Below, piece by piece: positions 20,967 to 23,573 of a DNA stretch of 47,184 nucleotides. This DNA is from Hyphomicrobiales bacterium. Its GTDB lineage: Bacteria > Pseudomonadota > Alphaproteobacteria > Rhizobiales > Xanthobacteraceae. A program made the position numbers and the translations under genes. The notes under the pieces were generated by a model that was given only the letters and a program-made list of their open reading frames with translations, did no database searches and was not told the DNA's origin. The stretch lies in NCBI GenBank assembly GCA_019075925.1, contig JAGXAC010000004.1, forward strand, positions 1 through 47,184, in the 5' to 3' direction. Numbering within the stretch: the stretch's first letter is position 1; each line of letters starts with the position of its first letter.

Positions 20967-23573
20967 ATGTGTCCGATAGGAATAATCACTGTGGATAACT
21001 TCGCAAAAGAAGCCGCGGGAAAATCCCCGCCATTGCCGATCGACGCGGCGCTGCCGGCACTCACCGCGGCGTTGCGCGCACGCAATGTGGCGGTTTTGGT
21101 CGCTCCGCCAGGCGCGGGCAAGACCACCCGCGTGCCCTTGGCGCTCGGCGGCGAGCCCTGGGCTGCGGACCGGCGCATTCTGGTGTTGGAGCCGCGCCGG
21201 ATTGCGGCCCGCGCCGCGGCGGCGCGAATGGCCAGGACCCTGGGCGAGGATATCGGCGAGACCGTCGGCCTGCGGGTGCGCTTTGGCTCGAAGACATCGC
21301 GGCGAACCCGGATCGAGATCGTGACCGAAGGCATTTTCACCCGGCTGGTCCTCGACGATCCGATGCTGGAGGACGTGGCTGCGGTCCTGTTCGACGAGTT
21401 CCACGAACGCTCGCTCGACGCCGATCTTGGGCTTGCTTTCGCCCGCGACGTGCAAAAAGGCCTGCGCGAAGATTTGCGGCTTCTCGTCATGTCGGCGACG
21501 ATCGACGGCGCGCGGGTATCCAAGCTGCTTGACGACGCGCCGGTAATCGCGGCTGAGGGCCGTGCGTTTCCGGTCGAAACCAGATATCTCGGGCGCGACG
21601 CGCGGCCGATCGAGCCGCAGCTCGCCGAAGCGATCCGCGGCGCCACGCGTACCAACTCCGGTTCGGTGCTGGCCTTTCTACCCGGCGCGGCGGAAATCCG
21701 CCGCACCGCGTCCCTCCTCGACGGCGCGCTCGATCCGGCGACCGACCTCGTTACGCTCTACGGCGCGCTCGCCGGCGAAGCGCAGGACCGCGCCATCGCC
21801 CCCGCCCCGCCCGGCCGGCGCAAGATCGTGCTGGCGACCTCGATTGCGGAGACATCGATCACCATCGAGGGCGTGCGCATAGTGGTCGACAGCGGGCTCG
21901 CCCGCGTGCCGCGTTACGAGCCCGACGTCGGCGTGACGCGTCTCGAAACCGTGCGCGTGTCGCGCGCGGCAGCCGATCAAAGGCGCGGCCGCGCCGGGCG
22001 GCTGGAGTCCGGTATCTGCTACCGGATGTGGGACGAACCGCAGACCGCCTCGCTCGAGCCGTATACCCGCCCGGAAATTTTGTCGGCCGATCTGTCGTCG
22101 TTCGCGCTCGATCTGGCGGCGTGGGGAAGCAGGCCCGAGCAACTTTCCTTCCTCGATCCGCCGCCCGCTCCCGCACTCAAAGAGGCATATGCGCTGCTGC
22201 GCGAACTTGGCGCCGTGGATAACGACGGCCGCATCACCGACGCGGGCCGCAAGCTGCGTCGCTTGCCGCTGCCGCCGCGCCTCTCGCGCATGGTCGTCGA
22301 TGCGGCGGCTCGGCGCGCTTCGCTCGCCGCTGCCGAGATCGCCGTCCTGATCGGCGAGCGCGGCCTTGGCGGCGATGACGTCGACCTGACGGCACGTCTC
22401 GACTCCTTTCACCGCGATCGCTCCGGCCGCGCACGCGAGGCTCGGGCGATGGCGGCGCGGTGGGCGGAATTGGCGCAGTCAAAAGACGCGCAGCCGGCGC
22501 AGCGCACTCCCTTTCCCGTTGTGGGAGACGGGTCGACGGGAAAATCACGCCCCGCCCTGCCCCTCCCCCACAAAGCGGGAGGCAACAGTCCAAGCGAGCC
22601 TCGCGCAGAAAGTGCCGGAGCCCTCCTCGCGCTCGCATTTCCCGAACGCATCGCCAAAAATCGCGGCGCCGGTGCCGGATCGTTCGTTCTCGCCAATGGC
22701 CGCGGCGCCCAGATCGATCCCGCTTCGGCGCTCGCGCGCGAGCCTTATCTTGCCGTTGCCGAACTTGCCGGTAGCGCCGCGGCCGGCCGCATCCTGCTCG
22801 CGGCGCCGATCTCGCCCGGCGAAATCGAAGCCCGCTTCGCCGATCGCATCGAGACGCGCGAAGAAATCAGTTTTGATGCGGCGAGCGCGAGCTTGCGACA
22901 GCGCGGAGTAAGACGCCTCGGCGCAATCGCGCTGGCCGAACAGCCAATGCCGGTGGAACCAAGCGACAATGCCGCGCGCTTGCTTGCCGAAGGCATCGCA
23001 CGACTCGGCGTCGAGCGATTGCCCTGGACCAGGGCGCTGCGGCAATGGCGCGACCGGGTGATGTTCTTACGCCAAGCCGAAGGCAACATCTGGCCCGATC
23101 TGTCCGATCCGGCACTCGCCGCCGAGATGGATTGGCTGACTGGCTTGTTCGCCGGCAAGACTTCGCTTGCCGCGCTTTCGGCCGACGAGTTCGCCGATGC
23201 CCTGACGTCGCGCCTGCCGTTTCCACTGCACCGCCGGCTGGAGGCAGAGGCGCCGACCCATTTCACCGCGCCAACCGGCTCGCAAGTGCCGATCGACTAC
23301 GAGGCCGACGGCGGCCCGAAAATTTCGATTCGCGTGCAGGAGCTTTTTGGCCTCGGTCGGCATCCGGCGATCGCTGCCGGAAAAATCGCGCTGCTGGTCG
23401 AGCTTCTTTCACCGGCGCACCGCCCGGTACAGATGACCCGCGACTTGCCCGGCTTCTGGCGCGGTAGCTATGCCGCAGTGCGCGCCGAAATGCGCGGTCG
23501 CTATCCGAAGCATCCCTGGCCGGACGATCCGATGACCGCGTTGCCGACGCGGCGCGCGAACAGGCGCAAATAG
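20967..23573 (+). CDS. hrpB: ATP-dependent helicase HrpB
   Basis: 868 aa; VLVAPPGAGKTTRVPLAL (Walker A), FDEFHERSLDADL, SATIDG, RRGRAGRLESGICYR. True start may be GTG at 20991. Carries an in-frame repeat at about 22501-22600. Confidence 0.93.
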   Translation: MCPIGIITVDNFAKEAAGKSPPLPIDAALPALTAALRARNVAVLVAPPGAGKTTRVPLALGGEPWAADRRILVLEPRRIAARAAAARMARTLGEDIGETVGLRVRFGSKTSRRTRIEIVTEGIFTRLVLDDPMLEDVAAVLFDEFHERSLDADLGLAFARDVQKGLREDLRLLVMSATIDGARVSKLLDDAPVIAAEGRAFPVETRYLGRDARPIEPQLAEAIRGATRTNSGSVLAFLPGAAEIRRTASLLDGALDPATDLVTLYGALAGEAQDRAIAPAPPGRRKIVLATSIAETSITIEGVRIVVDSGLARVPRYEPDVGVTRLETVRVSRAAADQRRGRAGRLESGICYRMWDEPQTASLEPYTRPEILSADLSSFALDLAAWGSRPEQLSFLDPPPAPALKEAYALLRELGAVDNDGRITDAGRKLRRLPLPPRLSRMVVDAAARRASLAAAEIAVLIGERGLGGDDVDLTARLDSFHRDRSGRAREARAMAARWAELAQSKDAQPAQRTPFPVVGDGSTGKSRPALPLPHKAGGNSPSEPRAESAGALLALAFPERIAKNRGAGAGSFVLANGRGAQIDPASALAREPYLAVAELAGSAAAGRILLAAPISPGEIEARFADRIETREEISFDAASASLRQRGVRRLGAIALAEQPMPVEPSDNAARLLAEGIARLGVERLPWTRALRQWRDRVMFLRQAEGNIWPDLSDPALAAEMDWLTGLFAGKTSLAALSADEFADALTSRLPFPLHRRLEAEAPTHFTAPTGSQVPIDYEADGGPKISIRVQELFGLGRHPAIAAGKIALLVELLSPAHRPVQMTRDLPGFWRGSYAAVRAEMRGRYPKHPWPDDPMTALPTRRANRRK
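22501..22600 (+). repeat. Palindromic repeat element inserted in-frame in hrpB
   Basis: CTTTCCCGTTGTGGGAGA at 22511-22528 and CCCTCCCCCACAAAGCGGGAGG at 22561-22582 form opposing hairpin ends. Translated as RTPFPVVGDGSTGKSRPALPLPHKAGGNSPSEP, an atypical low-complexity stretch in HrpB. Confidence 0.72.

What the first reader, a model, noticed from the sequence alone, without database searches (positions are those of the whole stretch)
22501..22600. Same repeat family in-frame in hrpB, the divergent neighbour of polA
Seen directly: hrpB contains CTTTCCCGTTGTGGGAGA (22511-22528). In polA coding orientation the corresponding terminus is CTTTTCCCGTTGCGGGAGA (revcomp of 19918-19936). They share TTTCCCGTTG[T/C]GGGAGA with one mismatch over 17 nt. 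The far end CCCTCCCCCACAAAGCGGGAGG resembles the other polA end (CCTCTCCCGCAAGGGAG). The peptides also match in part (PFPVVGDG vs SFPVAGESG). Inference: two independent in-frame insertions of one family less than 3 kb apart, in the same orientation relative to each gene, suggest a systematic ORF-colonising element rather than chance low complexity.
Basis: partly seen in the sequence, partly recalled or inferred. Interest (0 to 1): 0.8.

Follow-up and report, generated by a model that had tools for sequence, protein, structure and literature searches.

The report
Hairpin repeats spliced into repair genes
A short self-complementary DNA repeat, common between genes in this group of soil bacteria, has landed in-frame inside hrpB and the neighbouring polA gene; relatives show the same repeat repeatedly entering the same floppy protein linkers, unusually often in DNA-repair enzymes, a known but unexplained phenomenon seen here in a repeat family that appears to be undescribed.

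Summary
The hrpB segment (22511-22582) and the polA segment (19806-19936) are decayed, in-frame copies of two subtypes of one C/G-rich palindromic repeat superfamily in Xanthobacteraceae (Rhodopseudomonas, Bradyrhizobium and Pseudolabrys relatives). Congeners G009 and G010 carry an intact copy of about 145 nt at the same HrpB linker (RTPSPLAGEGRGGG...TPTPDPSPQGGGE); others have half a copy or none. The insert state changes at least 14 times on the HrpB tree, and AlphaFold leaves this linker disordered. The window's genome also holds an intergenic copy before murD and a decayed copy in a DNA ligase.

The family is not mainly ORF-colonising: of 177 sampled copies, 57% are intergenic and 24% lie inside genes, although about 87% of the sampled DNA is coding. 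The copies inside genes are strikingly concentrated in DNA replication and repair enzymes: PolA, UvrA, UvrB, UvrD, ATP-dependent ligase, its DEXH helicase, ImuB, DnaE2 and Nth (9 of 21 host families, against 1 of 30 random genes). The same bias was published for unrelated GTAG/CGTC REPs. No RAYT link, no GTAG/CGTC tag and only a modest frame preference were found. Verdict: a new member of a known kind, with a host-gene bias that deserves a mechanism.

The parts
20967..23573 (+). hrpB, ATP-dependent helicase HrpB (868 aa), host gene
   Evidence: Pfam HrpB_C, Helicase_C, HA2_N, DEAD
22502..22606 (+). decayed palindromic-repeat insert in the HrpB linker (about residues 512-546; outer limits approximate)
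   Evidence: orthologue alignment: intact copy in G009 and G010, half or none in others; pLDDT below 50 at residues 507-543
22511..22528 (+). left hairpin of the insert, CTTTCCCGTTGTGGGAGA
   Evidence: aligns with CCCTCCCCCCTTGCGGGGGAGGG of G009
22561..22582 (+). right hairpin of the insert, CCCTCCCCCACAAAGCGGGAGG
   Evidence: aligns with CCCCTCCCCACAAGGGGGAGGGG of G009
17874..20951 (-). polA, DNA polymerase I (1025 aa), second host gene
   Evidence: homologues in 40 of 41 genomes searched
19806..19936 (-). palindromic-repeat insert, CTCTCCC/GGGTGAGGGG subtype, in the PolA linker before the exonuclease/polymerase part
   Evidence: positions 19806-19859 match copies in relatives, 91-97% at best; recognisable in congeners' PolA linkers
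19814..19859 (+). best conserved half of the polA copy: hairpin, small second hairpin, GGGTGAGGGG tail
   Evidence: aligned copies
19917..19936 (+). other terminal hairpin of the polA copy, CTCTCCCGCAACGGGAAAAG

Best explanation
The two segments are in-frame relics of a non-autonomous, MITE/REP-like palindromic repeat of about 95-150 nt: two GC-rich terminal hairpins in inverted orientation around a variable centre. It spreads through Xanthobacteraceae genomes, mostly between genes. Now and then a copy enters an ORF. It is kept when the reading frame stays open and the encoded 35-50 residues (Pro/Gly/Ser/Glu rich) sit in a disordered linker, as in HrpB and PolA. It then decays by point mutation and in-frame deletion, often to one half, while the same permissive linker can be invaded again. 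Shown here: membership in the repeat superfamily, in-frame placement, the same linkers filled or empty in relatives, predicted disorder of the HrpB linker, and enrichment of DNA replication/repair hosts. Inferred: movement by a trans-acting enzyme not identified here, tolerance rather than benefit to the host protein, disorder of the PolA linker, and repeated gain rather than only repeated loss.
For: Intact 145-nt copies at the HrpB site in G009 and G010; half or no copies in other congeners and Bradyrhizobium. At least 14 changes of insert state on an HrpB tree built without the linker. Copies of 74-89% identity over the full length in congeners, and many half-copies across the family. Hairpin scan of G012/G023 stretches: 27 hairpins against 2 in reversed sequence. 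101 intergenic, 43 in-gene and 23 gene-edge copies. The DNA-ligase linker carries different subtypes and frames in G005, G012, G023 and G009 and is short in G008, G011 and G022, which favours independent hits. Database searches with the insert peptide alone find it in HrpB, PolA, ligase, UvrA, UvrB, DEXH helicase, aminoacyl-tRNA synthetases and oxoprolinase. Disordered linker. The intact element folds as one long hairpin, z = -7.2; the window copies only -2.1 and -2.8.
Against: No transposase tied to the family was found; one RAYT-like gene lies near two hairpins in G002 only. No target-site duplication could be read because empty and filled sites are too diverged. Gain and loss of the insert cannot be separated by parsimony. 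Translation of the inserts into stable protein is inferred from open frames only.
Confidence: 0.85

Rival explanations
1. Chance low-complexity, GC-rich linker sequence: Pro/Gly/Glu-rich disordered linkers in a GC-rich genome converge on C-runs and G-runs.
For: The window copies are decayed, and the best direct match between them covers only 17 nt.
Against: Intact 145-nt copies at the orthologous HrpB site, 89% identical between G009 and G010, and copies of 74-84% elsewhere; 97% over 37 nt for the polA half; hairpins nearly vanish in the reversed-sequence control.
Confidence: 0.03
2. One ancestral insertion per gene followed by many independent in-frame deletions; the repeat no longer moves and the linkers merely preserve fossils.
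For: PolA linkers of most genus members look like decays of one insert. Half-elements PSPQGGGE at the HrpB site look like deletion remnants. HrpB copies keep the same frame across genera.
Against: At the ligase linker different subtypes and different frames occur in different species. The HrpB insert of B. tropiciagri SEMIA 6148 (L125) is nested among many insert-free Bradyrhizobium.
Confidence: 0.25
3. The inserts are selected because they modify the host enzymes or their mRNAs, for instance as regulatory RNA hairpins or as weak-mutator alleles of repair genes.
For: Hosts are enriched for DNA replication/repair. The same bias is reported for GTAG/CGTC REPs (PMC3733652).
Against: Window copies have largely lost their fold and state turnover is frequent, which suits tolerance better than maintained function.
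Confidence: 0.12

Closest known systems
Rickettsia palindromic elements (RPE), Ogata et al. 2000/2002 as reviewed in PMC10969869
   Same: Palindromic repeats of about 150 bp inserted in-frame in unrelated genes; the encoded peptide is read as part of the host protein; same class of bacteria (Alphaproteobacteria).
   Different: GC-rich CCTCCCC/CTCTCCC hairpins, a predominantly intergenic majority, and another order (Hyphomicrobiales). RPE sequences themselves were not compared here.
GTAG- and CGTC-tagged REPs with intragenic copies (PMC3733652)
   Same: Short hairpins often in inverted pairs, mostly intergenic, with intragenic copies concentrated in DNA synthesis/repair genes: UvrA/B, UvrD, DNA polymerase I, DnaE2, DNA ligase, and also RNA helicases, tRNA synthetases and pseudouridine synthases.
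   Different: No GTAG next to any of 292 hairpins and CGTC next to only 17; no link to a RAYT in the richest genomes.
Br-REP1/Br-REP2 of Bradyrhizobium japonicum (PMC5082802)
   Same: Palindromic repeats of related bacteria, in intergenic regions.
   Different: The consensus CCGGAATCTCGAGATTCCGG and CGAGATTCCGGGTTCGGCTCTT... do not resemble the repeat here.

Membership tests
GTAG-tagged REP / RAYT system | unpaired GTAG at one end of the hairpin | tested here: not met
   0 of 292 hairpins have GTAG within 8 nt on either side
GTAG-tagged REP / RAYT system | RAYT (Y1 tyrosine transposase) gene in the genome, flanked by the repeats | tested here: not met
   No Y1_Tnp match in the window's genome or in G020, G022, G023 and G024, which are rich in copies; one RAYT-like gene near two hairpins in G002 only
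CGTC-tagged REP | unpaired CGTC at one end of the hairpin | tested here: not met
   17 of 292 hairpins, and no conserved column of that kind
Protein-coding palindromic repeat (RPE-like class) | palindromic repeat present in many copies in related genomes | tested here: met
Protein-coding palindromic repeat (RPE-like class) | in-frame insertion into otherwise conserved genes, absent from some orthologues | tested here: met
   HrpB, PolA and ligase alignments
Protein-coding palindromic repeat (RPE-like class) | insert lies at a surface or disordered position and is translated | tested here: inconclusive
   HrpB insert is predicted disordered; translation cannot be tested with these tools
MITE | terminal inverted repeats with target-site duplication | tested here: inconclusive
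   inverted ends are present; no duplication could be read from the nearest empty/filled pairs
RPE of Rickettsia (sequence family) | sequence relationship to RPE families | not tested
   no RPE sequence was compared; an Rfam search of the region gave nothing

The most novel reading that the evidence does not exclude
Unrelated palindromic repeat families land in the same restricted set of DNA-damage-response proteins because insertion itself is coupled to that response: copies enter genes that are being transcribed or handled by repair during damage, such as the imuA-imuB-dnaE2 operon, UvrA/B/D, and the damage-response ligase with its helicase. The host list would then be a fingerprint of when and where these repeats move.
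Probability: 0.15. Interest if true: 0.78.

Novelty: new member of a known kind. Interest (0 to 1): 0.5.

Why it matters
It adds what seems to be an undescribed repeat family, in a different order from Rickettsia, to the few known to write themselves into proteins. It also reproduces, with a differently built repeat, the published and unexplained concentration of such inserts in DNA replication and repair enzymes. Two or more unrelated repeats choosing the same proteins makes the cause testable: tolerance of these proteins, timing of movement, or selection. Because filled, half-filled and empty linkers occur in related species, insertion and removal can be examined in ordinary laboratory Bradyrhizobium or Rhodopseudomonas.

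Tried and rejected
Chance or low complexity: rejected by intact orthologous copies and the reversed-sequence control. GTAG/CGTC REP membership: tags absent. RAYT-driven system: no consistent association. Rfam family: no match at E up to 1. A strict single reading frame: the first impression that all inserts read PSPLAGEG did not hold. In 43 hairpins at 32 distinct sites the split was 25 acidic, 8 glycine and 10 arginine readings, against 36/26/38 % for the open frames of intergenic copies, p = 0.008. Target-site duplication from B. tropiciagri and its neighbours: unreadable through divergence. A text search for the peptide PSPLAGEGRG found no paper, and two wider searches found no description of this family.

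Full report
Observation. The quoted strings are at the stated coordinates. The shared motif occurs in the window only at these two places (0.23 expected with up to 3 mismatches). hrpB (20967-23573, +) and polA (17874-20951, -) are divergent with starts about 15 bp apart, and both segments lie in open frames.

Orthologues. In whole genomes of the same genus, HrpB of G009 and G010 carries an intact insert at the same linker, RTPSPLAGEGRGGGSGG...TPTPDPSPQGGGE. G005 carries a copy with another centre. G001, G004, G012 and G014 keep only what looks like a right-half remnant (PSPQGGGE-like). G002, G006, G008, G015, G016 and G017 have none. The window copy (RTPFPVVGDG...LPLPHKAGG) is a decayed version. 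Named relatives show the same. Bradyrhizobium hereditatis, B. tropiciagri SEMIA 6148, Nitrobacter winogradskyi, Tardiphaga and Afipia broomeae have inserts, while most Bradyrhizobium have short linkers. On an HrpB tree built without the linker columns, the full-insert state needs at least 14 changes among 98 sequences (18 rows with insert after two false calls, G020 and G024, were reset). PolA linkers of most genus members look like decays of a CTCTCCC-type insert, clearest in G000, G011 and G017. Intact PolA inserts occur in G023, whose PolA is recorded as Rhodopseudomonas sp., and similar ones in Tardiphaga, Nitrobacter and R. palustris.

The element. Copies share one plan: a terminal hairpin (CCCTCCCC or CTCTCCC stem, 2-9 nt loop), a G-rich tail (GGGGTGGGGG or GGGTGAGGGG), a variable centre, and the same in inverted order. 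The outer ends lie 93-174 nt apart. A subset extends further left (CCGCTTGCGCGGCGAACTCCCTCC), seen in both hrpB and ligase. The intact G009 element folds into one long hairpin (z = -7.2); the window copies fold weakly (z = -2.1 and -2.8). In 1.2 Mb of G012/G023 sequence the hairpin scan finds 27 hairpins against 2 in reversed sequence.

Own genome. Besides the window copies, the assembly (3.55 Mb, 88% complete) holds an intact copy at C229 just 5' of a gene whose translation looks like MurD (the murD name is my reading of the protein, not a profile match). It also holds a decayed copy in the linker of an ATP-dependent DNA ligase. Most congeners show 10-37 matches under the same limits. The family thus exists here but is nearly extinct, or under-assembled.

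Where copies lie. From copies sampled by DNA similarity or by plain stretches of sequence, not by gene, 101 clusters are intergenic, 43 lie inside predicted genes, 23 overlap gene ends and 10 are at contig ends. The coding fraction is 0.85-0.89 in the G012/G023 stretches. Gene calls are from my own codon-usage finder.

Host genes. Pfam and NCBIfam name the in-gene hosts: cisplatin-damage-response ATP-dependent DNA ligase (same linker in many genomes), UvrA, UvrB, UvrD, DnaE2, an ImuB-type polymerase, ImuA (below the NCBIfam cut-off), ligase-associated DEXH helicase, PolA, Nth, HrpB, RluA-type synthase, GlyS, a class I tRNA synthetase, oxoprolinase (three sites), NrdJ, PurL, UreF, a dehydrogenase and a few unnamed. 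I count 9 DNA replication/repair families of 21, against 1 of 30 length-weighted random genes. Fisher's test gives p = 7e-4, and 8 of 19 with p = 1e-3 without the seed genes HrpB and PolA. Database searches with the insert peptide alone give a weaker but concordant result, 6 of 22 host families (p = 0.03). The classification of families was done by hand after seeing the pattern, and the random-gene control is small and not matched for disorder, so matched counts are still needed. The same host classes are reported for GTAG and CGTC REPs in PMC3733652, and RPEs enter ORFs in Rickettsia (PMC10969869).

Frame. Readings with acidic 3' stems are preferred and arginine-rich readings are fewer than expected (43 hairpins at 32 distinct sites; p = 0.008), but all three occur. 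In full CCTCCCC-type inserts the right end reads TPTPxPSPQGGGE at several unrelated sites, while UvrD, UvrA and PurL use another frame.

Position in protein. AlphaFold2 on 25 HrpB sequences gives pLDDT below 50 for residues 507-543 between two well-modelled segments, which fits tolerance of insertion.

Mobility. No Y1 tyrosine transposase is found in the window's genome or in the copy-rich relatives G020, G022, G023 and G024. In G002 a RAYT-like gene lies near two hairpins, which is not enough to assign one. How the repeat moves is unknown; a trans-acting enzyme is inferred.

Different subtypes and frames at one ligase linker in different species argue for repeated independent entry. The remaining alternative, a few old insertions with many losses, is not excluded for PolA.

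Noticed in passing
L323 and L324 (G019:C75:16700-25605): An imuA-imuB-dnaE2 mutasome operon with hairpins of the family inside all three genes.
   Followed up: partly
L164, HrpB linker: In another MAG the same HrpB linker holds an unrelated repeat-like peptide, PGRAEGANPESRAPGFRAQRFAAPRNDG, suggesting that a second repeat family may use the same site.
   Followed up: no
L190:2117-2285 and L309 near 2710: A second site in the DNA ligase carries a tandem of about five MNPPPxAGEGK-like units in G018, with a related copy in G010.
   Followed up: no
L097 (G002:C261:2795-4529): A RAYT-like gene with two CTCTCCCGCTTGCGGGAGAGGG-type hairpins on one side only.
   Followed up: partly
window 20951-20967: polA and hrpB start codons are about 15 bp apart in divergent orientation, and the pair also lies side by side in several congeners, so each promoter probably overlaps the other gene's start.
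   Followed up: no
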